From Rufibacter roseus (GTDB lineage: Bacteria; Bacteroidota; Bacteroidia; Cytophagales; Hymenobacteraceae): a stretch of 64,000 nucleotides of DNA. The position numbers and the translations under genes are program-made. The DNA is taken from positions 186,001 through 250,000 of the forward strand of contig NZ_LRML01000005.1 of assembly GCF_001647285.1 (NCBI RefSeq). Direction: 5' to 3'. Positions within the stretch are counted from its first letter, which is position 1, and every line of letters begins with the position of its first letter. Below the pieces are notes generated by a model. The model ran no database searches and was not told the origin of the DNA. It worked only from the letters and a program-made list of their open reading frames with translations. Of the stretch, positions 2,198 to 60,471 are shown in pieces.

Positions 2198-2233
2198 GTT
2201 TTCAGGCTACTTTTCTTAAATCTAGCCCAAACC
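2198..2233. repeat. 36-bp palindromic repeat, copy 1
   Basis: A diverged member of the dispersed family: left half GTTTTCAGGC, right half ending TAGCCCAAACC. It lies 23 bp upstream of the pafA start, between pafA and the atpG terminator. The outer stem is retained and the centre is degenerate. Confidence 0.6.
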
Positions 2234-2320
2234 TAAATATAGATAGGTAATGGTCTATTTCATCTGAGGGATCGCCTTAAATGGGTAAATTTAACACCTC
2301 AGTAACATTAGAACATCCCC

Positions 2321-2351
2321 TAAAAGCAAAACGCCCATTCTTCAATGGGCG
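2321..2351 (-). terminator. Rho-independent terminator of the atp operon
   Basis: On the minus strand an 8-bp perfect stem CGCCCATT/AATGGGCG with loop GAAG (2332-2351) is followed by TTTTGCTTTT. It begins about 23 bp after the atpG stop and ends the eight-gene atp transcription unit. Confidence 0.85.
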
Positions 2352-2374
2352 CTGCATAAAGAGGTTTATAGTAC

Positions 2375-3265
2375 TTATTTACCGGCTGCGAGCGCCTCGG
2401 CACCACCCACAATCTCAAGGATCTCAGTGGTGATGGCTGCTTGCCTTGTTCGGTTATAAGTTAGTTTCAATTGCTTCAGTAGTTCACCGGCGTTGTCAGT
2501 GGCCTTGTCCATGGCGGTCATACGGGCACCATGCTCAGACGCATTAGACTCTAACACGGCTTTGTATACCTGAATCTTCAAAGATTTAGGTATCAGTTGC
2601 TCCAGAATCTCTTGCTTTGAAGGCTCAAAGATATAGTCAGACTCCGCTTGGCTGGCATTCTGCTCTTCTTGATTTTCCTGAATTGGCAAGAACTGCTCTG
2701 TCCGGATGATTTGGGTAGCTACGTTTTTAAATTCGTTGTACACCAAATCCACCTGATCATAGGCACCGGTTCTAAAACCTTCCATAGCTAACTCAGCAGC
2801 TACACGAACGGTGTCAAATGACAGATTACCAAAAACGGTGGTAAAATCGCCGGCCATGGTGTACCCGCGCTTGGCGAAATACTCGTGGCCTTTTTTACCT
2901 ATGGCCATGATAGACACATTACCAGCAGCAGCCTGTTGGGCATAACGCTCAGCAATGAGTTGGTTTACCGCTTTCTGCACGTTGCTGTTAAAGGCACCGC
3001 ACAAACCACGGTCAGAGGTAACGGCAATGATAAGCACCCGCTGTACGTCACGCTTTTGGGCATACGCATTGGTGCCTTCTTCGCTTTGTACACCAGAAAG
3101 GTTTTCCAGAATGTTGTTCAACCGTTGGGCATACGGACGCATGCGCATAATATTGTCCTGAGCCCGGCGCAGCTTAGCCGCCGCCACCATTTTCATGGCT
3201 TTGGTGATTTGCTGAGTAGAGCTTACCGAAACAATGCGGTTACGTACTTCTTTTAAACTAGCCAT
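2375..3265 (-). CDS. atpG: F1F0 ATP synthase subunit gamma
   Basis: The central rotating shaft of F1, coupling proton flow through the c ring to catalysis in the beta subunits. The 296-residue protein has the N-terminal coiled-coil segment STQQITKAMKMVAAAKL (about 15-31), the conserved GLCGAFN (87-93), and a C-terminal helix with ATDNAGELL...YNRTRQAAITTEI that pairs with the N-terminal helix. It is the last gene of the operon, 68 bp after atpA. That gap carries a 17-bp perfect inverted repeat. Confidence 0.97.
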   Translation of the reverse strand: MASLKEVRNRIVSVSSTQQITKAMKMVAAAKLRRAQDNIMRMRPYAQRLNNILENLSGVQSEEGTNAYAQKRDVQRVLIIAVTSDRGLCGAFNSNVQKAVNQLIAERYAQQAAAGNVSIMAIGKKGHEYFAKRGYTMAGDFTTVFGNLSFDTVRVAAELAMEGFRTGAYDQVDLVYNEFKNVATQIIRTEQFLPIQENQEEQNASQAESDYIFEPSKQEILEQLIPKSLKIQVYKAVLESNASEHGARMTAMDKATDNAGELLKQLKLTYNRTRQAAITTEILEIVGGAEALAAGK

Positions 3266-3287
3266 TTAATAGTTAGTCAGGGGTGAG

Positions 3288-3326: not shown

Positions 3327-3333
3327 TCTGATA

Positions 3334-4914
<1,581 letters not shown>

Positions 4915-4916
4915 GA

Positions 4917-6160: not shown

Positions 6161-6168
6161 ACTCATTC

Positions 6169-8255: not shown

Positions 8256-8291
8256 GTTTTTGGCTTGTTTTTAGAAAAGGAGGTCGAAAAC
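8256..8291. repeat. 36-bp palindromic repeat, copy 2
   Basis: GTTTTTGGCTTGTTTT then, after the centre, a right half ending GGTCGAAAAC. It lies between the terminator of the interrupted lipoprotein gene and the atp operon promoter. Confidence 0.75.
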
Positions 8292-8320: not shown

Positions 8321-8355
8321 CAAAAAAGAATCTAGAGCCTGATTTACAGGCTCTA
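8321..8355 (-). terminator. Terminator of the interrupted lipoprotein gene
   Basis: 9-bp perfect stem TAGAGCCTG/CAGGCTCTA (8333-8355, loop of 5) followed on the minus strand by GATTCTTTTTTG. The stem begins inside the TAG stop codon of the gene it ends. Confidence 0.85.
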
Positions 8356-8910
8356 ATCGCAGGCGCAGGTGCCGAACTTATAGTCGAAGCGACCGTTGCT
8401 CAGCGTGATGGTTTTGCTGCCAGAAGACTCCTTCAGGATAAGGTGGAAGGTGCCGGAGATGATCTCGCTCTGCCGGTCGAAGCGGGTTATTAGGAAACTG
8501 CTGCCCGGCTGGGGATACCCGTATTCAATGCGAGGTGAATCTTCACTTTGAAAGGTAACGTGAAGAGAATCTATCTTTTCGCCCATGCCACTTACTGACG
8601 CTCCTCCATTAGTACCTATGGCGAAAAAAGATTTTTTATCCTTCACATATTTCCGGAAAGTCATCCCGATGGCTTGCTGTGCATTCGCCAGCGGGCTCAC
8701 GTCTACATTCGCTCTCCCGCAGGGGTTGTCCAGCAGGGCGCATTCATAGTAAGGCACCCACACCTGCCCGTCTTCATAAGTGAAGCCGACGGTGTTCTTC
8801 CCCTCCTGGGTGGTGGCTGGCAGCTTGGCGTTCTTGGTGGGGTCGTCGTCTTTGCAGCAGGCGGAGAGGAGGAGAAGGCTGAGGAGTTATAATGGGATAA
8901 GCTTTTTCAT
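8353..8910 (-). pseudogene. Lipoprotein gene interrupted by an in-frame stop
   Basis: From the ATG at 8908-8910 the frame reads MKKLIPL, then TAA (8887-8889), then LLSLLLLSACCKDDD, and runs open to the TAG at 8353-8355. Without the stop this would be a 185-residue lipoprotein with a textbook signal peptide and lipobox (LSAC). The mature domain has several Cys (YECALLDNPCG and CACD at the end), suggesting disulfides; I recognise no family. The only ATG after the stop (8763) would give a 136-residue protein without an export signal. One base change explains the lesion, so it may be a recent mutation, a sequencing error, or an off-state. Confidence 0.8.
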
Positions 8911-20893: not shown

Positions 20894-20950
20894 AATACTG
20901 TACTTGTAAAGAAAAAGCGACATCACTAAGCGTAACTAATTTTAAGTTAG

Positions 20951-20981
20951 CAAAGATATACAACTGATTTCAAAAACAAAA
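20951..20981 (-). promoter_or_regulatory. Promoter of gldKLMN
   Basis: -7 box TATCTTTG (minus strand, 20951-20958) and a -33 TTTTG about 18 bp further upstream (20977-20981), the usual Bacteroidota arrangement. It leaves a 5' leader of about 50 nt before the gldK ATG. Confidence 0.55.
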
Positions 20982-21074
20982 TTATTGTTATTCCTCGAAC
21001 TTTATTTTTTTAACGAGATTATCAAATTATTATTTTAAGGGCTGAATAAATACTACATGGTCAACATGTTGCGC

Positions 21075-21094
21075 AATACCTACTTCTAGGTATT
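21075..21094 (-). other. Small hairpin after porP
   Basis: AATACCTA/TAGGTATT with loop of 4, directly at the porP stop. No T-tract follows, so it may be a weak stop signal or 3' stabiliser. Confidence 0.4.
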
Positions 21095-22059
21095 TACATG
21101 TTATATCTTGGGGTTCTGATTGGAGGTTTTGTAGTATTTTTAGATCTAGGCAGTCGGTAGCCTAACATAACCTCGTGAGAGGTAGGACTCTTGGCAGCAG
21201 CATTAACCACTGTATAATCAAAAGCATAACCAAAACTTAACGCATTGTTCTTCAATAAGTAAACACCTAACAAACCAGTCATTGCCTCTCCAAATCTATA
21301 CCCGGCCCCACCCCAGAACTTTTCATTGAAAGTTACCCTTACTCCTGCCTCCACAGATGACACTCCTGCATTTAAATCTTGTTTTAATATTGTTGTAGGT
21401 GTTACGACCACATTTGAAGAAAGTTCAGCATTATAACCCGCTGAAACCATCAGGTGCTTTTCTCCGGTCACAATGCTACGATCTGATGAACGTGCCTCGT
21501 TTTCAAATTCGTATGTCGCTCCTAATAAATTTGTTACACCTGCACCTAAATACCATCTTTCGTGCTGGTACCATGCTCCAACTCCCAAATCGTACTTACG
21601 GTCAGAGCTATTGAAAGGAACACGAGGATCGCCTATGTCATTAGGCCTGTAGCCACCTTTACTCATATTCACAAGCATCCCCTGAACCCCTATCCCAAGC
21701 CTACCGGCACCAATAGGGATATGATGCGCATAAGAGAGTTGCGCTGAGAAGACATCTACCGCCCCAATTTCATCATTCATCACCACAAGCCCCAAACCAC
21801 TTCTTAAGCCAGGCAAGGGAGCTGAAACTGAAAATAAAGCTGTTCTGGGAGCACCTCCGGCATCAAATGAACCTTCATAGCCAAGCCACTGGTACCGGTA
21901 CAATACATTCAACTCCGTTTGGCCGGTTATACCTGCGTAGCCTGGACTAATGAACTGTCCGTTAAAAGAGTAATGGCTGAATTGAGGAAGCTGCTGCGCC
22001 AAACCTAACAAAGGCACGGCAAAAAAGAAGACAAACAGTGACAGGCGAAATTTGTGCAT
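21094..22059 (-). CDS. porP: PorP/SprF family type IX secretion outer-membrane protein
   Basis: A 14-strand-type outer-membrane barrel protein of the PorP/SprF family, which links type IX cargo to the surface or to the motor. From the ATG at 22059 it has 321 residues with a signal peptide ending LGLAQQ. The typical opening QLPQFSHYSFNGQFISPGYAG and repeated aromatic beta-strands follow. ATGs at 22062 and 22083 are alternatives. It precedes gldK by 200 bp with a separate promoter between them, giving the porP-K-L-M-N order known from Porphyromonas. Confidence 0.9.
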   Translation of the reverse strand: MHKFRLSLFVFFFAVPLLGLAQQLPQFSHYSFNGQFISPGYAGITGQTELNVLYRYQWLGYEGSFDAGGAPRTALFSVSAPLPGLRSGLGLVVMNDEIGAVDVFSAQLSYAHHIPIGAGRLGIGVQGMLVNMSKGGYRPNDIGDPRVPFNSSDRKYDLGVGAWYQHERWYLGAGVTNLLGATYEFENEARSSDRSIVTGEKHLMVSAGYNAELSSNVVVTPTTILKQDLNAGVSSVEAGVRVTFNEKFWGGAGYRFGEAMTGLLGVYLLKNNALSFGYAFDYTVVNAAAKSPTSHEVMLGYRLPRSKNTTKPPIRTPRYNM

Positions 22060-22135
22060 CATAGAGTGCAATAAAGAATGCAAGACTATATCAAAATAGC
22101 AAAGGGCTTAAGCTAGCAAATTGTCGATAAACCAC

Positions 22136-22143
22136 CAAAGGTA
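22136..22143 (-). promoter_or_regulatory. Candidate -7 box upstream of porP
   Basis: TACCTTTG on the minus strand, about 76 bp before the chosen porP start. No well-spaced -33 element was seen. Confidence 0.4.
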
Positions 22144-22203
22144 TCCACAATTCTTTAGCCATAGCCCTTGCTACGCACAAATTAAATAAAAGTAACGTTA
22201 AGT

Positions 22204-22995: not shown

Positions 22996-23057
22996 GTTAG
23001 AAGGTATTTTTAAAAATGCAATCTAAGATTACTAATAAATCTTTGAGTCAAAACCAA

Positions 23058-27067: not shown

Positions 27068-27103
27068 GTTTTCGGCCTCTTTTTAAAAAAAGAGGCCGAA
27101 AAC
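27068..27103. repeat. 36-bp palindromic repeat, copy 4 (perfect stem)
   Basis: The most perfect copy: arms 27065-27084 and 27087-27106 are 20-bp exact complements with a 2-nt loop, extending the 36-mer by 3 bp each side. It lies between the convergent yraN and 27149 genes and could end transcription from both. Confidence 0.95.
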
Positions 27104-28199: not shown

Positions 28200-28235
28200 G
28201 TTTTTTAGCCGTTTTTTCAAAAACAACCCTAAAAC
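28200..28235. repeat. 36-bp palindromic repeat, copy 5
   Basis: GTTTTTTAGCCGTTTT at the left and AAAACAACCCTAAAAC at the right, a degenerate copy just past the rlpA terminator. Confidence 0.65.
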
Positions 28236-30412: not shown

Positions 30413-30756
30413 TATGATTTTTTTAATATATCTGCTGCTTCTCTAGCAACATCATTGATTATAACAGTTAGAACTAGAAAAGAAAAATAACCCTGTTGCC
30501 CTACCTATTGAACTACCCTCCTAACCCTGATTATACTTAAAGAACAAGCTTTACAGCCCTCCTTTCTTCCAGCTGGGTTTTAGGCTTGTTTTTTTAATAA
30601 AAAGCCTAAAACAGACGCATCGCACAATACACATGTATAGCTAAAACAAAGCTCCTTATCTTCTGTAAGTTCCGCCGATTTTACCAAACAGTGTGCTGCC
30701 CTAAGCAACCATTGCCTACAGATGAGCATCTATAGCACTAGAAAACAGCTACTGCT
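30413..30756. other. Intergenic region with one repeat
   Basis: 344 bp between two plus-strand genes. Contains one 36-bp palindrome (30577-30612); otherwise nothing recognisable. Confidence 0.6.
30577..30612. repeat. 36-bp palindromic repeat, copy 6
   Basis: Left GTTTTAGGCTTGTTTT, right ending AAAAAGCCTAAAAC. The A-T pair at stem position 6/31 replaces the C-G pair of other copies, a compensated change. Confidence 0.85.
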
Positions 30757-32320: not shown

Positions 32321-32356
32321 GTTTTAGGCTTGTTTTCCAGAAAATGGGCCCTAAAT
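32321..32356. repeat. 36-bp palindromic repeat, copy 7
   Basis: Left GTTTTAGGCTTGTTTT, right AAAATGGGCCCTAAAT. It is nested in a wider inverted pair, GCTTCTGA (about 32303) and TCAGAAGC (about 32356). Confidence 0.75.
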
Positions 32357-32517: not shown

Positions 32518-32520
32518 GAA

Positions 32521-32700
32521 TTGCAGGAGTCCCTTCTCCCTGAGGGAGAAGGGCTAGGGTGAGGGGCCAACGGTGGCTACAGAGAAACAGCTTTTGATTT
32601 ACCCAAATCCATTTTCTTTTCCTGAACAACCACTTCTGCCATTCGAAACGTTTTCCCCCTCATCCTATCCTTCTCCCTCAGGGAGAAGGGACTCCTGCAA
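32521..32700. repeat. Paired inverted arms (MITE-like composite)
   Basis: The first 32 bp (32521-32552) and last 32 bp (32669-32700) are exact reverse complements, and similarity continues for about 46 bp with one gap. Each arm contains its own 23-bp palindrome, CCCTTCTCCCT-G-AGGGAGAAGGG. The interior of about 90 bp has no ORF. Confidence 0.9.
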
Positions 32701-32703
32701 TGT

Positions 32704-35475: not shown

Positions 35476-35511
35476 GATTTTGGGTTGATTTTGGAAAAAC
35501 AGGCGAAAAAC
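35476..35511. repeat. 36-bp palindromic repeat, copy 10
   Basis: Degenerate: left GATTTTGGGTTGATTTT, right AAAACAGGCGAAAAAC. It lies 30 bp upstream of the response regulator start. Confidence 0.6.
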
Positions 35512-35632: not shown

Positions 35633-35668
35633 GTTCTCGGGCTCATTTCTGAAAACGAACCCAAAAAC
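35633..35668. repeat. 36-bp palindromic repeat, copy 11
   Basis: Left GTTCTCGGGCTCATTT, right AAACGAACCCAAAAAC. The GGG/CCC pairing is kept. Confidence 0.65.
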
Positions 35669-42244: not shown

Positions 42245-42278
42245 GTTTCCGGCCTCTATTTCTAGAAAGAGGCGAAAC
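42245..42278. repeat. Palindromic repeat, copy 13 (34 bp)
   Basis: GTTTCCGGCCTCTATTTC and GAAAGAGGCGAAAC form the stem, extended outward by CCCT/AGGG. Two bases shorter than the other copies. It lies 27 bp downstream of the M16 gene stop. Confidence 0.75.
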
Positions 42279-42305: not shown

Positions 42306-44375
42306 TTAGTTTACCTTGAAAACTTCATCTTTCAGGTTCTTGTTTACTTCTACGCTAGTCACTATAGATGGCAACACTTGTCCACCAACGTGCACCTCAA
42401 TTTTGTGCGGAAACTTGATACCGTTCACTTCACGATAGTCTTTCAAATCAGTGGTCTGAGAGGCAGTTCCTATGGCAGTTTGCTCAGTTACTACTTCACG
42501 CACTTTCAATCCGGTTTCCTTATCAAAATAATGGAATGACTTTTTACCGCTTGGCAGGGTCAGTTCCAGTTTGAAGGCATCACGGCCGTCTACTTTTTCC
42601 ATTTGGTTCAAAGCTAACTGCACACCTAAGCGGTCGTAGTTCAGAAAGCTCAGCCACAGGTCCATTTTCTGGTCTTGCACCTCATACTGATCCAACTCTT
42701 TTAAAGTACCCTGGCTACGCATTTGCCCTTTCGGTCCATTCACCACCACGCGGTTGATTTCATTGCCGGAGTGGCTTACTGTCAGAACCATTTTGTCTAT
42801 GCCTTTCTGCTGATGCTTCACATTCAGTTGGCCGCCTGGCATGTTGATGGTACGGTTAAAAGTTACATCTTTCACGTTCTCCAGAGCAGCTTTTCCGCCT
42901 AAGGCATTGATGTAGTTAGCCAATACAGTTTGCACGGTCACTCCGGAAGGAAGAGACATCAGAGGAGCTTCTACTTGCTCACCATAAGCATTGAAATAAG
43001 CTATGGGCTGGCTAGTATTGAATTTCTTTAGCCTATCAGCAATCTCGCGGGCGTTACCTACGGCTATTAAATGAGCGTTCTGCGGCTGCAGGTATTTTTG
43101 CGCTACCCGCTGCACATCTGCTGGCGTAACAGCGGCCACATTCTTCAGGTAGTTCGCGTAATAATCTTTAGGCAGGTTGTAACGCGCAGTATTAATAGCG
43201 AACATGGCCACTGTGAGCGGGTTCTCCAGAGAACGGGCAAAAGAGCCAATCATCATGTTCTGCACCTTCTGCAACTCCTCGGCCGAAACCGGTTCTTTGC
43301 GCAGGCGGTCCATTTCAAAAATGATTTGGGTGAAAGCGCTGTCGGTTACGGCATTCCGAACACTGGCGTAAGCCACAAACTGGCCCGCCACACGGTCTGA
43401 GGTAAGCGAAGAGTTAGAACCATAGGTATAAGCATGCTTCTCACGCAGGTTAGCATCTAAGCGGGCAAATGAACCACCTAAAATGCTGTTCATAATGGTG
43501 GCGGCAATGGCATCTGGGCTACCTGGCTTCAAGTCTGCCACGTGCGTAACCGAGATAGAAGACTGCACTGAGTTTGGTCTGTCTATAATGGATACTTTGT
43601 TGCTGCTGGCCAAAGCTGGAGCGGCATAAGTAGGCTGCGAAACGCTCCCTTTTTTCCACTTGCCAAAGTACTGCTTTACCAGCTTCTTAGCTTCTTTCAC
43701 GTTGATATCACCCACTATAGCCAAGTAACCAATGTTTGGTTTAAAGTAGGTGTTGTAGTACTGCTGCACATCTGGCAGGGTGATGTTCTCCACCGTTTTC
43801 TCGGTCATAATTTCACCGTACGGATGATTCTTGCCATACAGCAAAGTTCTTTGGGCGTTGTTTTCCATGGCCTCTGGGTTGTCTTTGGCAGAGGCAAGGT
43901 TAGAGAGAGCCTGCTTTTTGAACTTGTCAAGCTCTTCTTGCTTAAACTGCGGGTTCAGCACCACATCGGCACTTAGCTCCATTAGTTTTGGCAGGTGCTT
44001 TTTGAGGCCTCCGGCCGAAAACCCGGTAGCCGTTGTGTTCAAAGTGGCACCAATAAAGTCAATCTCCTCGTCTAGCTGGTCTTTTGTACGGGTTACTGTT
44101 CCGCTACGCATCAGGTAACCAGCGGCACTGGTAAGACCTACCTTTTCTCCTTCCACCACGGGTAAACGGTCAAGCACCAGGCTCATGGTAACTGTGGGCA
44201 ATTTGCGATTCTCTACCACATACACCTTTAGGCCGTTGGAGAGGGTGAAATATTCATACTTGCCTAACTCAATAATTGGAGCCGGACCGGCAGGCGGAGG
44301 CGTTTGTTTAGTTTGGGCCACACTGCCGAAAGAGACAGTAAGCGCCAAAAAGAAAGCTGAAATATATTTTTTCAT
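42306..44375 (-). CDS. M16-family peptidase-like protein, non-catalytic partner
   Basis: 689 residues. Signal peptide (about 1-20), two M16 domains (about 37-250 and 255-470), and an extra C-terminal domain of about 210 residues (LANYINALGGKAALENVKDVTFNRT onward, split by turns) resembling the lipoprotein-carrier-like domain found in such proteins. The zinc motif HxxEH is missing where expected (GLTSAAGYLMRSGT), so it should act as the inactive half of a heterodimer with the adjacent active M16 protein, 33 bp away. Confidence 0.9.
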   Translation of the reverse strand: MKKYISAFFLALTVSFGSVAQTKQTPPPAGPAPIIELGKYEYFTLSNGLKVYVVENRKLPTVTMSLVLDRLPVVEGEKVGLTSAAGYLMRSGTVTRTKDQLDEEIDFIGATLNTTATGFSAGGLKKHLPKLMELSADVVLNPQFKQEELDKFKKQALSNLASAKDNPEAMENNAQRTLLYGKNHPYGEIMTEKTVENITLPDVQQYYNTYFKPNIGYLAIVGDINVKEAKKLVKQYFGKWKKGSVSQPTYAAPALASSNKVSIIDRPNSVQSSISVTHVADLKPGSPDAIAATIMNSILGGSFARLDANLREKHAYTYGSNSSLTSDRVAGQFVAYASVRNAVTDSAFTQIIFEMDRLRKEPVSAEELQKVQNMMIGSFARSLENPLTVAMFAINTARYNLPKDYYANYLKNVAAVTPADVQRVAQKYLQPQNAHLIAVGNAREIADRLKKFNTSQPIAYFNAYGEQVEAPLMSLPSGVTVQTVLANYINALGGKAALENVKDVTFNRTINMPGGQLNVKHQQKGIDKMVLTVSHSGNEINRVVVNGPKGQMRSQGTLKELDQYEVQDQKMDLWLSFLNYDRLGVQLALNQMEKVDGRDAFKLELTLPSGKKSFHYFDKETGLKVREVVTEQTAIGTASQTTDLKDYREVNGIKFPHKIEVHVGGQVLPSIVTSVEVNKNLKDEVFKVN

Positions 44376-45937: not shown

Positions 45938-46330
45938 ATGAAAATCCTGAAAAACATTTCTCGGCTGGCCCTCCTGTTTGTAGGCTTATTGGCTGCCACT
46001 TCCGCTTTTGCCCAGCAAGGCCAAGGCGCACGTTTAACTGCTGCAGAAAGAGCTCAGATGCAGGTTGACCGTTACCAGAAACAACTGGATCTAACTCCTG
46101 AGCAAACGGTTAAAATCAAAGAGATAGTATTGGCCGGCGCCGAAGAACTAGACAAGATGCGCGCCAGCGGTGCCCGCCCAGACCGCGAAGCCATGCAGGC
46201 TACGGCTCTGAAACGTAACGAGGAAATCAAAGCGATTCTTACTCCTGAGCAACAAGCCAAATTTGATAAACTGCTGGCTGATCAATTAGAACGCCGAGGC
46301 CAGGGTGGCCGTGGCCAAAGACGTAATTAG
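45938..46330 (+). CDS. Spy/CpxP-like periplasmic LTxxQ protein
   Basis: 130 residues. Signal peptide (about 1-25, ending AFAQQ), then an all-helical mature part with two LTPEQ motifs (QLDLTPEQTVKIKEIV and IKAILTPEQQAKFDKLL) and a Gly/Arg-rich tail. The two LTxxQ motifs are typical of the Spy/CpxP chaperone and sensor group; Bacteroidota relatives are mostly uncharacterised. Divergent from the M16 pair; own terminator. Confidence 0.8.
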   Translation: MKILKNISRLALLFVGLLAATSAFAQQGQGARLTAAERAQMQVDRYQKQLDLTPEQTVKIKEIVLAGAEELDKMRASGARPDREAMQATALKRNEEIKAILTPEQQAKFDKLLADQLERRGQGGRGQRRN

Positions 46331-46389: not shown

Positions 46390-46425
46390 GTTTTGAGGCT
46401 GTTTTTCTAAAAACAGACCTAAAAG
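46390..46425. repeat. 36-bp palindromic repeat, copy 14
   Basis: Left GTTTTGAGGCTGTTTT, right AAAACAGACCTAAAAG. It starts 3 bp after the terminator T-tract. Confidence 0.8.
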
Positions 46426-48937: not shown

Positions 48938-49711
48938 ATGAAGGCAGCATTCCGGATGATGATTTTATGCCTGTTTTTCTCCTGTTCACAACAGGAGAAA
49001 AACTCTGTTTCTCCCCAAGCTGTATCAATCAATGATGTAACTGAAGACAAAGCAGCAACAAAAAACACAGCCAAAGAAGTGGAGAAGCCAGCAACTCCTG
49101 TTTGTAATTATGACAATGATGTTTCGGACTTAGGATTGGGCCTTGTTCAAGCTCCAACCACCTTTGAGTTGTTCAATGATAGCCTCCTCACCAATTTGTT
49201 TTTACAATGGGACATGCACTCCAGTGACACGCCTCCCAAACCTTTATGCTCTAAATATTACATGCCAGAGTACGGCATTATGCACTTTATATGCCTTCAA
49301 AAGACAAGTACGTATTTTAAAGTGCTTGTAAACTTCAATGAAGTAAAATATTTCCCCGCTACTACTGAATATCAGTTCCAAACTTGGGAGAACTATATTC
49401 TCTCTTCTTATGGTATTAGGAGAACAACTAGTGAAGATGGGAGCATTGCTTATCATCAGTCTCTAAGAAGTTCTCCTTCTGAATCAGCAAAATCAATAGA
49501 AATTCCAGAGGGACTAGAGAACTTTTGCCCTAGAGAAATAAAAGGTGACTGGGTTAAAGTAACATATGATTGCTTTTACAATGTAGAGGAGCCAATGAAC
49601 GAAGGAGAGCCATGTCACAATTACATTAACAAATGTAAAAACCCAACCTCAGGTTGGTTAAGGTGGCGCCAAAAGAACAAAATTTTGATAGATATATTTT
49701 TGATGCCCTAA
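48938..49711 (+). CDS. Hypothetical lipoprotein, AT-rich
   Basis: 257 residues. Signal peptide with lipobox FFSC (Cys about 16), a Ser/Thr/Lys-rich spacer, then a domain with many Cys (about 58, 104, 119, 204, 220, 236, 241) that probably forms disulfides. No family recognised. Base composition is visibly more AT-rich than the neighbours, a possible sign of transfer. It lies 19 bp after the acylase gene. Confidence 0.7.
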   Translation: MKAAFRMMILCLFFSCSQQEKNSVSPQAVSINDVTEDKAATKNTAKEVEKPATPVCNYDNDVSDLGLGLVQAPTTFELFNDSLLTNLFLQWDMHSSDTPPKPLCSKYYMPEYGIMHFICLQKTSTYFKVLVNFNEVKYFPATTEYQFQTWENYILSSYGIRRTTSEDGSIAYHQSLRSSPSESAKSIEIPEGLENFCPREIKGDWVKVTYDCFYNVEEPMNEGEPCHNYINKCKNPTSGWLRWRQKNKILIDIFLMP

Positions 49712-49765: not shown

Positions 49766-50098
49766 ATGCTCTTTCTCCTCATACTGCTCCTCAGCCTGAT
49801 TGCCCAGCTTTTCCTGCCTTGGTGGAGCTTGGCTGTTGTCTGCTTTTTGATAGCCGCCTGGAAAGCCCGGCACGGCGGGCACGCTTTTTTAGCGGGTTTC
49901 GGAGCAATTGCGCTTTTATGGTTGGGAGCGGCGTTGTTCTGGCACTTTGCCTCTGAAGGAATTCTGACCGAACGCGTGGCAGCCATGATGACAGCCAGTT
50001 CCACCATTTTACTGTTCGTGGCTACAGTGGCATTGGGTGGTTTGGTTGGCGGCCTAAGTGCTATGTCCGGCTTTTATGTTAGGCGGGCGCTGGGGTAG
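49766..50098 (+). CDS. Small membrane protein of unknown function
   Basis: 110 residues with about four membrane helices (MLFLLILLLSLIAQLFL; WSLAVVCFLIAAW; AGFGAIALLWLGAALFWHF; STILLFVATVALGGLVGGL). The first loop holds KARHGGH. Not recognised. It sits between two 36-bp repeats, one starting 1 bp after its stop. Confidence 0.7.
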   Translation: MLFLLILLLSLIAQLFLPWWSLAVVCFLIAAWKARHGGHAFLAGFGAIALLWLGAALFWHFASEGILTERVAAMMTASSTILLFVATVALGGLVGGLSAMSGFYVRRALG

Positions 50099-50266: not shown

Positions 50267-51448
50267 ATGAAACTCCTGCTCGCTCTTATAGTTGTTTTCT
50301 TGCTGTCATTTTCGGTAAAAGCCCAAACAGACCAGCCGCCTTACCGGCTTTCCGCTGAGTTGCAAAGGCAAATAGAACAGGATACTGTTCCATGGAAAAT
50401 GCAGAAAGCCGCCTGGGCTTATTCGTTCATGGGCGACTACCCAAAAGCGTTAGAGGCGTGGGCTACACAGTACGGTAACATGAATCGCAAAGTCACCGCC
50501 CAAGACAGCGCCACCTTCGCCGCCTACACCCCCAGAAACGCCACCGAGTATATTCTGCAACAGGCCCCTCAGGAGCAGATTCTCATCATCAATGAAGCGC
50601 ACCACAACCCGTTGCACCGCACATTTACGCAATCTTTACTGGAAGATTTGCACAAGCAGGGCTACCGGTATTTAGGCTTAGAAGGACTTTACCAGCAAGA
50701 CAGCCTAATTAACCAACGAAAATATCCGGTGCAGGAAAGTGGCTACTACGCCAAAGAACCGCAGTTCGGAAATTTGATCAGAGAAGCCATGCGTCTGGGC
50801 TTTACAGTGTTCGGCTACGATGCCGAGGGCAACGGCAAAGTGCGGGAAATTGGGCAGGCGCGCAACATCCAAAAAGTACTTCAGCGCGACCCGAAGGCCA
50901 AAATCATCCTCCACTGCGGGTTTGACCACATCAACGAAGGCCCTTCTCAGGCTTGGGAGAAAGCCATGGCTGGCCGTCTGAAGGAATTCACCGGCATTGA
51001 TCCCTTCACAATTGACCAGGAAGCTTACACCGAAACCAGCGACAACCGTTTTGACCAGCCGTTCTTTCAGCTTTCGCGCTTAGATTACCCAGCGGTGTAC
51101 GTGCATAAAGACACAGGCAAGCCCTTTGCCGGAAGCGGCCAGTACCGTACTGTAGATGCCGTAGTGGTGCACCCCAGAACCACCTACGTTTCCGGCCGAC
51201 CCAATTGGCTTTGGTTTGGTGGGAAAAGAAAATCTTACCAAATTCCGCCAGCTAAAATAAAACTTGGTTTCCCTTGCCTGGTGATGGCCTACAAAGCCGG
51301 AGAGAATGAGTTAGCCGTACCTATGGATGTGGTAGAATTCAACAGCGCGCAAGACATAAAGCCGCTGGTGCTGCCCAAAGGCTCATACCGCGTAAAACTC
51401 AAAGACAGCACCGGCAAAGAACAAGAACTGCAAGTACGGGTGAAGTAG
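50267..51448 (+). CDS. Exported EreA/ChaN-like fold protein
   Basis: 393 residues. Signal peptide (about 1-20, ending VKAQ), a short helical part, then a domain with NEAHHNPLHR (109-118), YLGLEGL (about 136) and HCGFDH (about 219). This spacing of an E-H-H motif, an LEG strand and a later His motif recalls the EreA/ChaN/TraB group of esterase- or haem-binding-like folds. The match is by motif only. A beta-rich C-terminal part of about 100 residues follows. Function unknown; export is clear. Confidence 0.65.
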   Translation: MKLLLALIVVFLLSFSVKAQTDQPPYRLSAELQRQIEQDTVPWKMQKAAWAYSFMGDYPKALEAWATQYGNMNRKVTAQDSATFAAYTPRNATEYILQQAPQEQILIINEAHHNPLHRTFTQSLLEDLHKQGYRYLGLEGLYQQDSLINQRKYPVQESGYYAKEPQFGNLIREAMRLGFTVFGYDAEGNGKVREIGQARNIQKVLQRDPKAKIILHCGFDHINEGPSQAWEKAMAGRLKEFTGIDPFTIDQEAYTETSDNRFDQPFFQLSRLDYPAVYVHKDTGKPFAGSGQYRTVDAVVVHPRTTYVSGRPNWLWFGGKRKSYQIPPAKIKLGFPCLVMAYKAGENELAVPMDVVEFNSAQDIKPLVLPKGSYRVKLKDSTGKEQELQVRVK

Positions 51449-55280: not shown

Positions 55281-57722
55281 ATGAAAAAAAGAGCCCTCTT
55301 TTTGCTGGGTCTGCTATGCCTTTGCCTGAACGTTTCTGTTGAGGGCTGGGCCCAATCCGCCTCCCAACCCATAGCATTAGCCGAGGTGAAAGGCCCAGGC
55401 AAAATTTCCGGTGTCCTCACAGATTCATTAACTGGCAAACCAGTAGAATTTGCGACAGTGGCGCTGCTGCAAAACGGAAAGAATCTAGACGGTACCCTCA
55501 CCGATAGCCGCGGCCACTTTACCTTTTCCCACCTCCGCACCGGCACTTATGAACTGAATTTCTCCTTCATCGGCTACAATGCCAAAAATTTAAAATCTAT
55601 CATTATCACGGAAAAAGATCCGGAGGTAATAGTGGGCAATACCAAGCTGAGTCCGGCGGCCACTAAGCTGCAGGAGGTAACGGTGGTGGGCCAGAAGCCT
55701 CTGATTGAAGACAAAATTGACCGCCTGATCTATAATGCTGACCAAGATTTGACCAATACCGGTGGAAACGCCGCCGATGTGCTGCAGAAAGTGCCCTCGC
55801 TCACCGTTGACGCCGACGGAAACGTGCAGCTGCGGGGCTCCGGCAACGTGCGGGTGCTGCTGAATGGCAAACCGTCTCCTTTCTTGGCTAATAATCTGGC
55901 TGAAGCCCTGAAGCAAATCCCTTCGGACCAGATTAAAAGTGTAGAGGTCATCACCAGTCCATCGGCGAAATATGACGCAGAGGGCACCGCCGGCATCATC
56001 AACATCATCACTAAAAAGAGTTTTGTACCCGGCCTGAACGGGAACGTAGGCCTTACTCTTGGCAACAGGAACAGCAGCCTGAGCAGCAGCCTTTACGCCC
56101 GACGCGGCAAGTTCGGCACCAACTTGTCTTTGAGTGGCTTTCAGTATAACGTGCCCAAAGGCTTCGGCATGTACCGGAAGGAGTTTAGGGAAGGCGAAGA
56201 CGTGGTGACCACCCAAACGGGCGGCGGCCGGGTGTACGGCGGCGGCGGAAACGTACAGCTGGGGCTTGAGTACGATCTGGATTCTGTGAACCTACTTTCT
56301 GCGGGCGTACAACTAAACACCGGCCGTTACAAAGGCGACGGAAGCCAGAAAACCATCACCTCAGAATCTGGACCTTACCAACAAATTGGCAATAACACCC
56401 ACAATCAGTTTTCTCCCCTCAGCGCTGATATCAACTTTGGTTACACCCGCATAATCAAACCCAAGCAGGAACTAACGGTGCTGGGGCAGTTCAGCCAGTT
56501 TAAAATGGAAAGCTTTATTGACCAGAACCGGCACACGCTGGGTGACCAGCAACTGTACTACCTGCAGCACAATACCAACCAGAGCATGAACCGCGAAACC
56601 ACGCTGCAAACCGATTACGTGCATCCGTTCACCGACAAATCAACGCTGGAAGTGGGTGTAAAAAGTATTTTCAGGCGGGCCTACAGCAATACGCAGTACC
56701 AGGTGCACTATCCGCTGGAAGACCGACAAGATTTGGAAGACAACAACTTTAACTATACCCAAGATGTGGCGGCGGGCTACCTCTCTTATAAAGTAACTTT
56801 GCTCAAGAACTACGCCGCCATTATCGGAGTTCGGTATGAACATACTCGCCTGAAAGGAGCGTTCACCAGTACGCAAACGAATCTGGATGAATCGTACCAG
56901 CACATTATCCCGAGCCTGGCCGTGTCACGCACGTTCAAGGAAAACCACACGCTCAAACTAAGTTACACGCAACGGCTGCAGCGCCCGCACATTTTCCTGC
57001 TCAACCCTTACCGCGACATACGCGACCCTAAAAGCGTGTTCTATGGCAACCCCAAACTAGCCCCTGAACTGTCGCACCTGTACGAAATTGGCTATAGCAC
57101 TTTCTTCAAAACCAGCTCGGTTTCTACTGCTCTCTATGTTAGAAAAATCAACAACGCCATTCAGCAGGTGACGCCAGAAATTATTGATGGCATTTCGCAG
57201 AACACCTTTGCCAACGCCGGAAAACTGCTGAGCTACGGCCTCAACGTATCAGGGTCTACCAAGCCAGTGCCCGCCCTGAACCTGAACGGAAACCTGAACC
57301 TTTACTACAACCAAATTAACGGTTTGGGCATGCACAACAGCGGCTGGCAGTACAACCTCAGCTTCTCCACCGGCTATGATTTCGGGAAAGGTTTTAGCGG
57401 CCAGTTTTCCGGTGGTTTCAACTCGCCCCGGGTGCTGCTGCAGGGCCAGTCACTTTCCTGGAGCTACTACAACTTGGCTGTAAAGAAAGAGTTGTTTGAC
57501 AAACGAGGCAGCGTGAGCTTGGGCGTGAACAATCCGTTCACCAAGAGCATTAACTACGGTCAACAAATCAGCACCGCCGTTTTTGAGCAAACCAACGACA
57601 ACATCAACTTTAACCGCGGCATCCGCATCAGCTTCGACTTTAAGTTTGGGCAACAAAGTGGCAGCAAACCTCCTAGAAAGAAGAAGACCATTAAGAATGA
57701 CGACATGAAGGAGGGGGCGTAA
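55281..57722 (+). CDS. Outer-membrane beta-barrel receptor (TonB-dependent-type)
   Basis: 813 residues. Signal peptide (about 1-26), a carboxypeptidase-regulatory-like beta domain (about 45-120: SGVLTDSLTGKPVEFATVAL, GHFTFSHLRTGTYELNFSFIGY), a plug domain (about 130-250: ADVLQKVPSLTVDADGNVQLRG, VLLNGKPSPF, VEVITSPSAKYDAEGTAGIINI) and a barrel to the end. This is the outer membrane beta-barrel family close to TonB-dependent receptors. The basic tail (GSKPPRKKKTIKNDD) is unusual for a barrel end. Nearness to the ECF sigma genes suggests, without proof, joint control. Confidence 0.9.
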   Translation: MKKRALFLLGLLCLCLNVSVEGWAQSASQPIALAEVKGPGKISGVLTDSLTGKPVEFATVALLQNGKNLDGTLTDSRGHFTFSHLRTGTYELNFSFIGYNAKNLKSIIITEKDPEVIVGNTKLSPAATKLQEVTVVGQKPLIEDKIDRLIYNADQDLTNTGGNAADVLQKVPSLTVDADGNVQLRGSGNVRVLLNGKPSPFLANNLAEALKQIPSDQIKSVEVITSPSAKYDAEGTAGIINIITKKSFVPGLNGNVGLTLGNRNSSLSSSLYARRGKFGTNLSLSGFQYNVPKGFGMYRKEFREGEDVVTTQTGGGRVYGGGGNVQLGLEYDLDSVNLLSAGVQLNTGRYKGDGSQKTITSESGPYQQIGNNTHNQFSPLSADINFGYTRIIKPKQELTVLGQFSQFKMESFIDQNRHTLGDQQLYYLQHNTNQSMNRETTLQTDYVHPFTDKSTLEVGVKSIFRRAYSNTQYQVHYPLEDRQDLEDNNFNYTQDVAAGYLSYKVTLLKNYAAIIGVRYEHTRLKGAFTSTQTNLDESYQHIIPSLAVSRTFKENHTLKLSYTQRLQRPHIFLLNPYRDIRDPKSVFYGNPKLAPELSHLYEIGYSTFFKTSSVSTALYVRKINNAIQQVTPEIIDGISQNTFANAGKLLSYGLNVSGSTKPVPALNLNGNLNLYYNQINGLGMHNSGWQYNLSFSTGYDFGKGFSGQFSGGFNSPRVLLQGQSLSWSYYNLAVKKELFDKRGSVSLGVNNPFTKSINYGQQISTAVFEQTNDNINFNRGIRISFDFKFGQQSGSKPPRKKKTIKNDDMKEGA

Positions 57723-57862: not shown

Positions 57863-57877
57863 AGAAATATTCTTGCC

Positions 57878-57913: not shown

Positions 57914-57928
57914 AAAAACTTTCCCCTC

Positions 57929-59074
57929 ATGCGGCACGCGCTCACCAACGGCACCATTTACTCAGGCCATACCACGGCCCAAGGCTACGCGGTCTTGTTT
58001 GAAGAAGATAAAATCATTGATGTGATTCAGGCCGATGAAATTCCGGCAGACACCACCATTATTGACGTGCAGGGCGGCATTATCTGTCCGGGCTTCGTGG
58101 ATTTGCAGGTGAACGGCGGCGGTGGCGTGTACTTCACCCAATACCCCACGCTGGAGAGCCTGAATACCATCCGAGATGCGCACCTGCAATTCGGTACCAC
58201 CAGCTTTCTGCCTACAGTCATTTCGGCGTTTCAGGAGACTATTCTGGAAACCATTTCCGCGGTGCGCCAGGCCATGCAGCAACACCCCAGCACCTTTCTG
58301 GGCATGCATCTGGAAGGGCCATTCTTTAATCCAGAGAAACTAGGAGCACATGATCCTGCCTGCATCCGGAGCGCCACGCATGAGGAACTGGATGTGCTGT
58401 TAGAGGCGGGGAAAGATGTGATTACTTACCTTACCCTGGCCCCCGAATGCATAGAGGAAGACATTCTAAAACGCCTGGCCCAAACCGACATCGTGCTGTC
58501 AGCCGGACATAGCCTAGCCACCTATGACCAAGCCCTACACTTCTTTCAGAACGGTATTACCGCTGTTACGCACCTGTACAACGCCATGAGCGGCATAGAC
58601 ACCAAGGCACCCGGTCTGGCAGCTGCCACCCTAGACTACGGACATGCCTGGACGGGCATTATTGTAGACGGAGAGCACTGCCACCCGTACGCCGTGCGAC
58701 TGGCCAAGAAAATGCTGGGCCAGAAACTGCTGCTCATCTCAGACTGCGCCGCCTGCGTAGGTTCTGATATTGAATTCTCTGCGTTTGGCAATTTCGTTTC
58801 ATACTACCGCAACGGCCGCTGCGAAACCGAAGATGGCCGGTTGGCCGGTTCTGCCCTCACCATGCTGAAAGCCGTGCAAAATACCGTAAACATGGTGGGT
58901 CTACCCGTAGATGAGGCTATAAGAATGGCAACACTTTATCCGGCGCAGGTTCTGAAACTGGAACAGAAGGTAGGGCAGCTTATTCCTGGCGCAGCCGCCA
59001 ATCTGGTGGTCATGAATCAGGAGCTGGAACTGCAACAGGTGTGGGTAGACGGGCAGCAGGTGACGTTGCATTAA
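57929..59074 (+). CDS. nagA: N-acetylglucosamine-6-phosphate deacetylase
   Basis: Removes acetate from GlcNAc-6-phosphate in amino-sugar recycling, cytoplasmic. 381 residues of the amidohydrolase fold: GFVDLQVNGGGG (about 53-64), metal ligand Glu E129 in MHLEGPFFNPEKLGAHD, LSAGHSLATYD, VTHLYNAMSG and catalytic Asp region LISDCAA. Length fits the family. It could feed cell-wall sugar to glycolysis, in line with the pfkB gene 129 bp downstream. Confidence 0.94.
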   Translation: MRHALTNGTIYSGHTTAQGYAVLFEEDKIIDVIQADEIPADTTIIDVQGGIICPGFVDLQVNGGGGVYFTQYPTLESLNTIRDAHLQFGTTSFLPTVISAFQETILETISAVRQAMQQHPSTFLGMHLEGPFFNPEKLGAHDPACIRSATHEELDVLLEAGKDVITYLTLAPECIEEDILKRLAQTDIVLSAGHSLATYDQALHFFQNGITAVTHLYNAMSGIDTKAPGLAAATLDYGHAWTGIIVDGEHCHPYAVRLAKKMLGQKLLLISDCAACVGSDIEFSAFGNFVSYYRNGRCETEDGRLAGSALTMLKAVQNTVNMVGLPVDEAIRMATLYPAQVLKLEQKVGQLIPGAAANLVVMNQELELQQVWVDGQQVTLH

Positions 59075-59083
59075 CCAGAGGCT

Positions 59084-59119
59084 GTTTTAGCCCTGTTTTC
59101 ATAAAAACAGCCTTAAAAC
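59084..59119. repeat. 36-bp palindromic repeat, copy 21
   Basis: Left GTTTTAGCCCTGTTTT, right AAAACAGCCTTAAAAC. It starts 9 bp after the nagA stop. Confidence 0.85.
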
Positions 59120-59203
59120 AGTTTTTCCCGTTTATGGTTTATATCTTTAAAATATAACCTGCGGCCCGAGCGGCACCCATACAAGAGAGCTAACACCCCA
59201 ACT

Positions 59204-60142
59204 ATGAAAATCATTACCATTACCATCAACCCAGCCTTAGATAAAAGTACCCGCCTTCCAAAGCTGGCTCCAGAGAAGAAACTCCGCTGTGAAACTCCCA
59301 CTTATGAGCCGGGTGGCGGCGGCATCAATGTTTCCAGAGCCATTAAAAAGTTAGGCGGCGAATCAATTGCCTGGTACTTATCTGGCGGGGCGGCAGGCAA
59401 ACGGATAGGGCAACTTCTTGAGGAGGAAGGGGTACAATACCGCGAATTCCAATGTGAGAACTGGACCCGTGAGAACCTGATGGTATATGAAAAATCTTCG
59501 GGCGAACAGTTTCGGTTTGGTATGCCCGGTCCGCATATCTCAGAACCAGAGTGGCGGCAAATTCTGCAGGCGCTGGAAGACCTCCAAGACATACCTGAAT
59601 ATGTAGTGGCCAGCGGCAGCAACGCCCCAGGCGTACCCGATGATTTCTATGGGCAAATTGCCCAAATAGCCGTCAAAAAAGGATTTAAATTAGTTGTAGA
59701 CACCTCGGGCGAAGCACTTATGTCCTCGGCCGGCGAAGGCATATTCATGCTCAAGCCCAACCTGAACGAGCTGGCCGCCTTGGCAGGCAAAGATAAGATC
59801 TCGGCCAAAGAGCAGGAAGAGCTCGCCCAGCAGGTAATTGCAGAAGGCAAAAGTCAGGTACTGGTTGTTTCTCTTGGCCCTCGTGGCGCCATGCTCGCTA
59901 CCAAAGACAACATTGAATACATTGTTCCGCCCACCGTAAAGCAAGATAGCGCCGTGGGTGCCGGAGATAGTATGGTAGGGGGAATGGTGCTTAAACTTAC
60001 TGAAGGTTGGTCGCTTTCTGACGTAGTGCGCTACGGCGTAGCCACCGGTTCCGCCACCACCATGACTCCTGGCTCTGAGCTCTGCCGCAAACCAGACGTA
60101 GAAGAAATTTATGCCTGGATCAAACTGCACGGCTCTTTGTAA
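59204..60142 (+). CDS. pfkB: PfkB-family phosphofructokinase (ribokinase fold)
   Basis: 312 residues. TITINPALDKS at the N-terminus, GGGGINVSRAIKKLGG (about 37-52), KPNLNEL and the catalytic GAGDS with base D255 (252-256). This follows 6-phosphofructokinase II / 1-phosphofructokinase / tagatose-6-phosphate kinase sequences, with MPGP and TRENLMV typical of the group. Fructose-6-phosphate is the most likely substrate, though others in the group cannot be excluded. Confidence 0.88.
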   Translation: MKIITITINPALDKSTRLPKLAPEKKLRCETPTYEPGGGGINVSRAIKKLGGESIAWYLSGGAAGKRIGQLLEEEGVQYREFQCENWTRENLMVYEKSSGEQFRFGMPGPHISEPEWRQILQALEDLQDIPEYVVASGSNAPGVPDDFYGQIAQIAVKKGFKLVVDTSGEALMSSAGEGIFMLKPNLNELAALAGKDKISAKEQEELAQQVIAEGKSQVLVVSLGPRGAMLATKDNIEYIVPPTVKQDSAVGAGDSMVGGMVLKLTEGWSLSDVVRYGVATGSATTMTPGSELCRKPDVEEIYAWIKLHGSL

Positions 60143-60471
60143 AAGTCACTGCTGCTTCCCTGGCGCTAAACATAAGATTATAATCTCGCTGCAACTCTTC
60201 ACCATAAACAGGCACGCCAGATAAGTTATTTTCCATCCCTGTTTTAGGGCTGTTTTCATAAAAGCAGCCCTAAAACAGGGATTCTTTTTTGTACAGGTGG
60301 TGAAGCTTTCCTACTACCCATGAACCTCAACAACTGGGTTAAAAAATACCACTGTTTGGAGATTCTGCTAGGCTCGCGCCCATTCATTTTTTGCTTTCCA
60401 GCCCCATTATTAGTAAACTTAAGGTGGCAAAATAATTTGCTTCTTACCCAACCACTAAACAAACCAAACCA
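60143..60471. other. Intergenic region with one repeat
   Basis: 329 bp between pfkB and tldD. Apart from the 36-bp palindrome at 60241-60276 nothing was recognised. Confidence 0.6.
60241..60276. repeat. 36-bp palindromic repeat, copy 22 (terminator-like)
   Basis: Left GTTTTAGGGCTGTTTT, right AAAGCAGCCCTAAAAC; CCCT and AGGG extend the stem to 20 bp. On the plus strand it is followed by ATTCTTTTTT, so this copy may serve as the pfkB terminator. Position 9/28 is a G-C pair here and C-G in other copies. Confidence 0.9.

What the first reader, a model, noticed from the sequence alone, without database searches (positions are those of the whole stretch)
2198..60276. Family of 22 dispersed palindromes, 21 of them exactly 36 bp, at transcription-unit ends
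Seen directly: copies start at 2198, 8256, 9041, 27068, 28200, 30577, 32321, 32482, 32704, 35476, 35633, 39293, 42245 (34 bp), 46390, 49720, 50100, 51511, 55143, 57827, 57878, 59084 and 60241. Each has a left half near GTTTTNGGCCTSTTTT, a 4-nt centre, and a complementary right half. All lie outside genes, many within 1-60 bp of a stop codon, and none is inside the atp, gldKLMN or uvrC units. Stem bases covary: pair 6/31 is C-G or A-T, pair 9/28 is C-G or G-C, pair 12/25 is G-C or C-G. Fixed length with compensated changes points to selection on the structure or to copying of a fixed unit. Possible roles: REP-like element, mRNA 3' hairpin, binding site for a nucleoid or terminator protein. No RAYT-type transposase is in the window.
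Basis: partly seen in the sequence, partly recalled or inferred. Interest (0 to 1): 0.85.

Follow-up and report, generated by a model that had tools for sequence, protein, structure and literature searches.

The report
Palindromes marking Rufibacter transcription-unit ends
In the bacterial genus Rufibacter a palindrome about 36 letters long sits at fixed places, mostly where genes end, often more than a thousand times per genome; each species spells it a little differently, which looks like a DNA signal read by a still unknown protein rather than a jumping repeat.

Summary
The repeat family is real and larger than reported. The host is Rufibacter. The own genome holds 1200 copies at up to 3 mismatches, none for the backwards pattern, and about 1770 by extrapolation from 319 in 924 kb. 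All 16 Rufibacter genomes carry it; in the order scan 8 of 8 Rufibacter genomes matched, against one place in 382 others.
Copies are intergenic (287 of 313), mostly at gene ends: 57 of 67 convergent gaps of 100 bp or more hold one, 32 of 93 divergent, 1 of 93 tandem gaps under 60 bp.
New facts: copies keep their place (1387 of 1468 anchored comparisons; 65 of 1167 copy-free control points). Yet orthologs between distant species are hardly more alike than random copies, while several species show their own dialect. Half-sites are symmetric, nearly always 4 bp apart, and only weakly held by RNA pairing.
So a REP/RAYT-type mobile repeat is unlikely and RNA hairpin function looks secondary. Best reading: a vertically inherited dyad recognition site for an unidentified DNA-binding protein at transcription-unit boundaries. 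The protein and its effect are inferred, not shown.

The parts
2198..2233 (.). copy; 141 bp from the stop of the ATP-synt-family gene 2375-3265(-)
   Evidence: 28.6 bits; a copy 130-144 bp from the same stop in 14 of 14 genomes listed
8256..8291 (.). copy between two minus-strand genes, 61 bp after the stop of 8353-8763(-)
   Evidence: 44.7 bits
9041..9076 (.). copy in a divergent gap, 15 of 16 arm pairs
   Evidence: 47.8 bits
   Evidence: 31.7 bits, inside coding sequence
27068..27103 (.). copy between convergent genes, perfect 16 of 16
   Evidence: 47.6 bits; at least one copy in this gap in 15 of 15 relatives
28200..28235 (.). copy 55 bp after the stop of 28291-29091(-)
   Evidence: 40.0 bits; 54-67 bp from this stop in 16 of 16 genomes
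30577..30612 (.). copy in a tandem gap
   Evidence: 39.7 bits; copy in only 2 of 9 comparable relatives
32321..32356 (.). copy 25 bp after the stop of 30802-32295(+)
   Evidence: 35.0 bits
32482..32517 (.). copy in the same convergent gap
   Evidence: 38.4 bits
32704..32739 (.). copy 35 bp after the stop of 32775-34079(-)
   Evidence: 41.3 bits
35476..35511 (.). copy 30 bp upstream of the start of 34063-35445(-)
   Evidence: 39.3 bits; a site at 29-30 bp in 11 of 15 genomes listed
35633..35668 (.). second copy in the same gap
   Evidence: 30.6 bits
39293..39328 (.). copy 11 bp after the stop of 39340-40755(-)
   Evidence: 42.4 bits; at least one copy in this gap in 14 of 14 comparable relatives
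42245..42278 (.). 34-bp variant, about 25 bp after the stop of 42306-44375(-); relatives carry 36-bp forms in this gap
   Evidence: 17.1 bits; copy in 7 of 7 comparable relatives
46390..46425 (.). copy 59 bp after the stop of 45938-46330(+)
   Evidence: 43.3 bits
49720..49755 (.). copy 8 bp after the stop of 48956-49711(+)
   Evidence: 43.8 bits
50100..50135 (.). copy 1 bp after the stop of 49847-50098(+)
   Evidence: 37.9 bits
51511..51546 (.). copy 62 bp after the stop of 50399-51448(+)
   Evidence: 48.6 bits
55143..55178 (.). copy 102 bp before the start of 55281-57722(+)
   Evidence: 40.0 bits
57827..57862 (.). copy 104 bp after the stop of 55281-57722(+)
   Evidence: 26.6 bits
57878..57913 (.). 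second copy 15 bp further, 15 bp before the next start
   Evidence: 37.7 bits
59084..59119 (.). copy 9 bp after the stop of 57929-59074(+)
   Evidence: 47.9 bits
60241..60276 (.). copy 98 bp after the stop of 59204-60142(+); the flanks extend the stem
   Evidence: 49.4 bits; folded with 10-bp flanks: -36.4 kcal/mol, z -9.6

Best explanation
The 36-bp (about 40-bp) dyad is a vertically inherited DNA recognition site at transcription-unit boundaries, read as double-stranded DNA by a symmetric (dimeric) sequence-specific protein not yet identified. Two half-sites (GTTTTNRRSYTRWTTTYN) at a strict 4-bp centre are each constrained largely on their own. Shown: the motif, its place mostly at gene ends, its fixed orthologous positions, the species dialects, the weakness of RNA-pairing constraint, the lack of detected mobility. 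Inferred: that a protein binds it; that its specificity has drifted between species so that a large set of sites per genome drifted with it; that binding insulates neighbouring units, as a roadblock to read-through transcription or an anchor that absorbs transcription-driven supercoiling, above all between convergent genes. A subset has in addition become the tip of longer hairpins with T-richer tails and may double as a bidirectional intrinsic terminator.
For: Constraint differs by position: T3, T4, T14, T15 are 97-99% fixed, position 6 nearly free, and all 319 own copies differ in sequence. One spacing dominates. Arms show no asymmetry relative to transcription at p<0.05 in 16 of 18 positions; 11 and 13 are the weak exceptions. 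Positions: 1387 of 1468 anchored comparisons hold a copy against 65 of 1167 control points; gap table summed over 15 relatives: both 107, own only 9, relative only 18, neither 241. In seven distant pairs orthologs are 0.61-0.74 alike, random between-genome pairs 0.62-0.69, paralogs within a genome 0.68-0.78. Dialects: 12 C 90% and 13 A 66% in G012; 6 T 93% in G300; 5 A 67% and 6 G 72% in R. immobilis; 12 G 82% and 13 T 87% in R. ruber (the R. ruber set is biased, see Tried and rejected). Ends: convergent gaps >=100 bp 57 of 67, divergent 32 of 93. RNA pairing near stops: GU 394, AC 331, other 804; 19 terminator-like stems of the own genome gave 12, 6 and 1.
Against: No binding protein was identified and no expression data were available. 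Pairing is not irrelevant: perfect copies exceed expectation in the own genome (21 of 319 against 1.1), G300 (11 of 100 against 2.5), R. immobilis (14 of 120 against 3.8) and G012 (15 of 114 against 7.0); among 826 ortholog pairs there are 712 compensated pair changes against 279 (sd 16) with reshuffled arms, though not independent and not clear in most of the five close pairs taken singly. Pairing is better near stops, with slightly more GU than AC (p 0.02). Over all pairs orthologs are somewhat more alike (0.684) than non-orthologs (0.639), and the own genome's paralogs (0.678) are hardly more alike than its copies are to other genomes', so its dialect is weak. About a third of divergent gaps >=100 bp hold a copy. 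The control points are mostly tandem gaps; among them the 15 in convergent gaps all had a copy in the relative. G008 copies are degenerate (23.6 bits, none perfect, 3 reversed hits against 102). Gene borders come from my own gene caller.
Confidence: 0.55

Rival explanations
1. RNA-level element: the copy is a 3' hairpin of the mRNA that protects it from exonucleases or is part of an intrinsic (often bidirectional) terminator.
For: Near-stop (60 of 366) and convergent (49 of 255) copies are more often perfect than near-start (11 of 172) and divergent (8 of 94) ones; flanks extend the stem by 5 or more pairs in 124 of 887 copies against 10.8 expected; T is enriched further out in 156 orientations with 4 or more extra pairs. 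GU over AC 394 to 331 near stops. 712 compensated changes among ortholog pairs against 279 expected. Some fold very stably (27068: -34.2 kcal/mol).
Against: 804 non-GU, non-AC mismatches are tolerated; 2 of 6 folded window copies are not clearly more stable than shuffles, z -1.0 and +0.6; mean pairs of 16 are 12.0 against 11.5 for shuffled arms in the own genome and not higher than shuffled in G012 and G300; pairing alone cannot fix T3, T4, T14, T15, the 4-bp spacing or a species dialect; no U-tract directly follows.
Confidence: 0.2
2. REP/RAYT-like or MITE-like mobile repeat, spread and homogenised by a Y1 (HUH) transposase or another enzyme.
For: Short dispersed palindrome, mostly intergenic; species-wide homogenisation; Y1-family proteins over the curated cut-off in 15 of 16 genomes; some R. 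ruber and G012 copies are not unique (281 of 296 and 107 of 114 distinct, though R. ruber stretches overlap); Y1 loci have copies on both sides in 6 of 28 against 14.4% of background genes, no test run.
Against: G007 has 1252 copies at up to 3 mismatches but no Y1 match better than E 0.5. Close species: 92 of 94 anchored copies shared, 24 of 118 without anchor; the two misses are a coding-region look-alike and an interval where the relative keeps a degenerate stretch. A 31.7-kb stretch with defence-type genes has none; about 11 expected at the mean density. No tandem arrays: 26 of 856 neighbouring pairs closer than 60 bp, the window counted twice.
Confidence: 0.1
3. DNA-uptake (self-recognition) signal like the DUS of Neisseriaceae, here as a palindrome, kept by biased uptake and recombination rather than by a function at each site.
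For: Thousands of copies, species dialects, inverted pairs at gene ends and core-genome bias are what PMC3630211 reports for DUS (passages read). The own genome would devote about 1.2% to it (319 x 36 per 924 kb). A foreign-looking stretch lacks it. ComEC-type and DprA-type proteins in 16 of 16 genomes.
Against: Rarely inside genes (13 of 313 fully inside), whereas intragenic DUS are common. Most left half-sites have their partner: 246 pairs at gap 4 among 300 left hits. ComEC and DprA occur also where the motif is weak (G008, G396), so they do not track it. I recall no report of competence for the genus; not searched.
Confidence: 0.12

Closest known systems
REP / BIME elements with TnpA-REP (RAYT); GTAG and CGTC palindrome families
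   Same: Short palindromes, up to thousands per genome, mostly intergenic (PMC3733652, passages read)
   Different: No GTAG or CGTC foot; 16-bp arms with a fixed 4-bp centre; no arrays; no clear Y1 gene link; fixed orthologous positions across a genus, whereas PMC3733652 describes families unevenly distributed among species
Atypical REP-like structures of TnpA-Y1 subclass 2.6 (Bacteroidetes)
   Same: Bacteroidetes, hairpins without GT[AG]G, copies elsewhere in the genome (PMC6006769, section 12 and passages)
   Different: Those flank the Y1 genes; here Y1 genes are not clearly more flanked than other genes and G007 has no credible Y1 gene. Their sequences are in a supplement I did not see, and I did not assign the Rufibacter Y1 proteins to subclasses
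DNA uptake sequence dialects of Neisseriaceae
   Same: Species dialects, thousands of copies, inverted pairs at gene ends (PMC3630211, passages)
   Different: DUS is a 10-mer (12-mer recalled), often inside genes; here a single long dyad mostly outside genes
Bidirectional intrinsic terminators
   Same: Inverted repeat between convergent genes; the subset with extended stems has T-richer tails
   Different: No U-tract directly after the 36-mer, fixed sequence, dialects; ordinary terminator-like palindromes occur beside it and in sister genera

Membership tests
REP/RAYT | GTAG or CGTC tetranucleotide at one end | tested here: not met
   Consensus borders are CY|GTTTT and AAAAC|RG
REP/RAYT | Cognate Y1 gene flanked by the repeat | tested here: not met
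   Copies within 300 bp on both sides in 6 of 28 Y1 loci, background 14.4% of 312 own genes; 30 loci held, 2 without a usable ORF
REP/RAYT | Y1 enzyme in every genome with many copies | tested here: not met
   G007: 1252 copies, best Y1 match E 0.5 with two stops
REP/RAYT | Recent gain and loss of copies | tested here: not met
   92 of 94 anchored copies shared in six directed comparisons of three close pairs; strains of one species were not available
REP/RAYT | Many, mostly intergenic, palindromic copies | tested here: met
   319 in 924 kb; 287 of 313 intergenic
Intrinsic terminator / RNA hairpin | Stem kept by base pairing, GU tolerated over AC | tested here: inconclusive
   394 GU, 331 AC (p 0.02), 804 other; compensated changes 712 against 279 among ortholog pairs
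Intrinsic terminator / RNA hairpin | T-tract after the stem | tested here: inconclusive
   T about 0.3 from position 4 on for 686 near-stop orientations, up to 0.54 in 156 with extended stems
DNA uptake sequence | Species dialects | tested here: met
   Position-specific shifts between several species
DNA uptake sequence | Common inside genes | tested here: not met
   13 of 313 fully inside
DNA uptake sequence | Promotes uptake of DNA that carries it | not testable with these tools
   Needs a transformation assay
Protein-binding dyad site | Two symmetric half-sites at one spacing | tested here: met
   246 arm pairs at gap 4; 3 at gap 3, 3 at gap 5, 7 at gaps of 15-55
Protein-binding dyad site | A protein binds it | not testable with these tools
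   No candidate protein identified
Rfam families | Match at the gathering score | tested here: not met
   0 matches in the window

The most novel reading that the evidence does not exclude
A genus-wide DNA punctuation mark: a long dyad at most convergent transcription-unit ends, at positions largely inherited since the ancestor of Rufibacter, read by a protein whose specificity changes from species to species and drags a thousand or more sites with it. It may serve as a transcription roadblock/topological insulator or, most boldly, as a palindromic self-recognition signal for DNA uptake in Bacteroidetes.
Probability: 0.4. Interest if true: 0.9.

Novelty: new variant of a known kind. Interest (0 to 1): 0.75.

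Why it matters
Abundant extragenic palindromes are usually filed as mobile or selfish repeats. Here positions are nearly frozen while the sequence keeps being rewritten in step across the genome, which is hard to explain without a trans-acting reader. G008 and G396, with weak motifs, may be natural partial loss cases.

Tried and rejected
RAYT mobilisation: PF01797 searched in 16 genomes and 28 of 30 held loci measured for flanking copies: no clear association. An early impression from R. immobilis, a Y1 gene with copies on both sides, did not hold up across loci.

RNA function: oriented GU against AC counts, shuffled arms, the 22-row alignment, ortholog pairs and folding of 6 of the 23 window sites: partial support only.

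Bias to know: 106 of the 108 loci were used, and the R. ruber set is mostly made of them. They were fetched because they hold a near-perfect copy, so perfect-copy counts there (R. ruber 67 of 296 against 9.8) are inflated and I do not lean on them.

Inverted centre between close species as a general process: 2 exact inversions against 1.9 expected in 65 pairs, not supported. Promoter adjacency: TAnnTTT[GC] within 20 bp upstream in 16 of 558 near-start orientations and 22 of 995 near-stop ones: no rule. Regular spacing: coefficient of variation 1.2. Tandem arrays: none among the closest pairs listed. tRNA ends: only 3 tRNAs in the 924 kb, uninformative. Crude terminator calls: terminators coexist with copies in mixed order, no clear replacement; the finder also fires on reversed sequence (27 of 207 gaps).

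Sister genera at the orthologous region: 0 hits at 12 bits in 60 kb of each of five genomes. The covariance model finds 1-6 strand-matches in 21 of 188 other genomes of the family, with at most 33 candidates scored per genome; the only two Pontibacter loci I looked at are one shared gene cluster. Plasmid and phage collections: one unrelated partial match and none for the consensus; no plasmid match for window 20923-23057. Viral collection: one contig, twice. Competence genes as the tracking factor: ComEC and DprA in 16 of 16, not discriminating.

Papers: PMC3733652 and PMC3630211 passages; PMC6006769 passages and section 12; all others search listings only. Searches that listed no paper on this element; that is not proof that none exists.

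Full report
Observation. A symmetric weight matrix from 21 of them scores 21 of the 22 at 29 bits or more and the 34-bp copy at 20.7; the best score in ten Markov-1 resamplings of the window is 9.5. One further site, 11267, lies inside a coding sequence. The copies are imperfect dyads: 8-17 of 18 pairs. The window alignment alone shows no covariation beyond shuffles.

Host and range. With up to 2 mismatches the own genome has 754 copies and the backwards control 0. In the order scan 8 of 8 Rufibacter genomes matched, and 1 place in 1 of 382 others. With up to 3 mismatches all 16 Rufibacter genomes have 154-1986 copies, the own one 1200; the backwards control gave 1 in one genome and 0 in the rest. 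A covariance model finds 1-6 strand-matches in 21 of 188 other genomes of the family. I looked at two loci, both found by pattern: the Pontibacter contigs L016 and L070 share one gene cluster and one copy site, consistent with transfer of a Rufibacter-type segment. In syntenic stretches the density is 0.23-0.48 per kb in all 16 genomes, reversed controls 0, so differences in strict counts seem to reflect how closely each species follows the pattern more than how many sites it has.

Anatomy. In 924 kb of the own genome 319 copies were found, none for the reversed sequence, all different. Arms stand exactly 4 bp apart in 246 pairs, with 3 at gap 3, 3 at gap 5 and 7 at larger gaps. T3, T4, T14 and T15 are 97-99% fixed, position 6 is nearly free, position 9 is C or G in 89%. 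Conservation continues outward: C or T at -1 in 95%, C at -2 in 55%.

Placement. 287 of 313 copies are wholly intergenic, 13 overlap genes and 13 lie inside, although 82-86% of the sequence is coding. By gap type and length: convergent >=100 bp 57 of 67 with a copy, divergent >=100 bp 32 of 93, tandem under 60 bp 1 of 93, tandem >=100 bp 158 of 303. In tandem gaps 74% of 185 copies are nearer the stop than the start. Genes were called by my own dicodon script, so single borders may be wrong.

Positions are inherited. Comparing the window with syntenic stretches of 15 relatives gap by gap gives both 107, own only 9, relative only 18, neither 241 (sums over). All-against-all among 16 genomes, 1387 of 1468 anchored copies have a partner, against 65 of 1167 copy-free intergenic points taken from 6 of the genomes. 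These comparisons are not independent, and the control points are mostly tandem: 0 of 860 with both genes on the minus strand, 32 of 83 with both on plus, 18 of 209 divergent, and all 15 convergent ones had a copy in the relative. Three closest pairs, both directions: of 118 copies 94 were anchored and 92 shared; one miss is a coding look-alike and the other an interval where the relative keeps a degenerate stretch. Distances are kept too: 54-67 bp from the stop at the 28200 site in 16 of 16 genomes. Counter-example: the 30577 gap has a copy in only 2 of 9 comparable relatives.

Sequences are not inherited in the same way. In the seven distant pairs listed orthologous copies are 0.61-0.74 identical, random pairs between the same genomes 0.62-0.69, paralogs within a genome 0.68-0.78; over all pairs orthologs reach 0.684, non-orthologs 0.639, paralogs 0.685. 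Several species have their own spelling: CR at 12-13 in G012, T at 6 in G300 and G007, AG at 5-6 in R. immobilis, GT at 12-13 in R. ruber; the own genome's spelling is loose. G008 is degenerate (23.6 bits; 3 reversed hits against 102). Fixed sites with a moving consensus are what a trans-acting reader with drifting specificity would leave; that step is inference.

DNA or RNA. Arms are symmetric relative to transcription in 16 of 18 positions. In transcript orientation near stops there are 394 GU, 331 AC and 804 other mismatches (p 0.02 for GU over AC); near starts 181, 197 and 431; 19 terminator-like stems of the own genome gave 12, 6 and 1. Pairing does matter somewhat: perfect copies are 21 against 1.1 expected in the own genome, yet the mean hardly differs (12.0 against 11.5) and in G012 and G300 not at all; ortholog pairs show 712 compensated changes against 279 expected. 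In 124 of 887 copies site-specific flanks extend the dyad by 5 or more pairs, against 10.8 expected, more often at gene ends. Either some copies serve as terminator hairpins, or template switching during replication perfects and extends them; I cannot separate the two. The sets include 106 loci chosen for a near-perfect copy.

Probably not a mobile repeat. Y1 genes are not clearly surrounded by copies, G007 has many copies and no credible Y1 gene, neighbouring copies form no arrays, and the longest copy-free stretch, 31.7 kb with three convergent pairs, carries restriction, DndE-like, HerA-like and DprA-like genes among the 10 of its 24 genes that I scanned, a foreign-looking stretch. How so many copies arose in one ancestor remains unexplained; an old burst followed by domestication is possible.

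Comparison. REP families (PMC3733652, PMC6006769) share looks, not most of the tested features. DUS dialects (PMC3630211) are the closest parallel in evolutionary behaviour. ComEC and DprA occur in 16 of 16 genomes and do not track motif strength. The searches listed no paper on this element.

Noticed in passing
L095:3059-3134, L011:732-799 and other loci: Perfect inverted extension of site-specific flanks around the 36-mer, up to 20 bp on each side; looks like template switching or terminator building.
   Followed up: partly
L016:4683-4718 and L070:6779-6814: Two Pontibacter species share one gene cluster with one copy; 40-bp flanks differ by one base, but one copy is the reverse complement of the other plus one substitution, as if flipped in place.
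   Followed up: partly
G000:C33:137596-169296 (L191-L193): 31.7-kb stretch without copies, with restriction/DndE/HerA-type genes and a second DprA homologue.
   Followed up: partly
L114: An IMG/VR 'viral' contig whose first 1624 held bases are identical to R. immobilis DNA (L108); the only viral-collection hit for the repeat.
   Followed up: partly
window 35476-35511: Promoter-proximal site 29-30 bp before a minus-strand gene start in 11 of 15 genomes listed; the half next to the gene looks better conserved than the dyad.
   Followed up: no
window 32518-32703: The stretch between two copies has inverted ends (gaattgcaggagtcc / ggactcctgcaatgt), seen in the flanks printed.
   Followed up: no
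   Followed up: partly
window copies: The repeat begins GTTTT and ends AAAAC at 36 bp, like many type II CRISPR repeats (recalled); no arrays, so probably coincidence.
   Followed up: no
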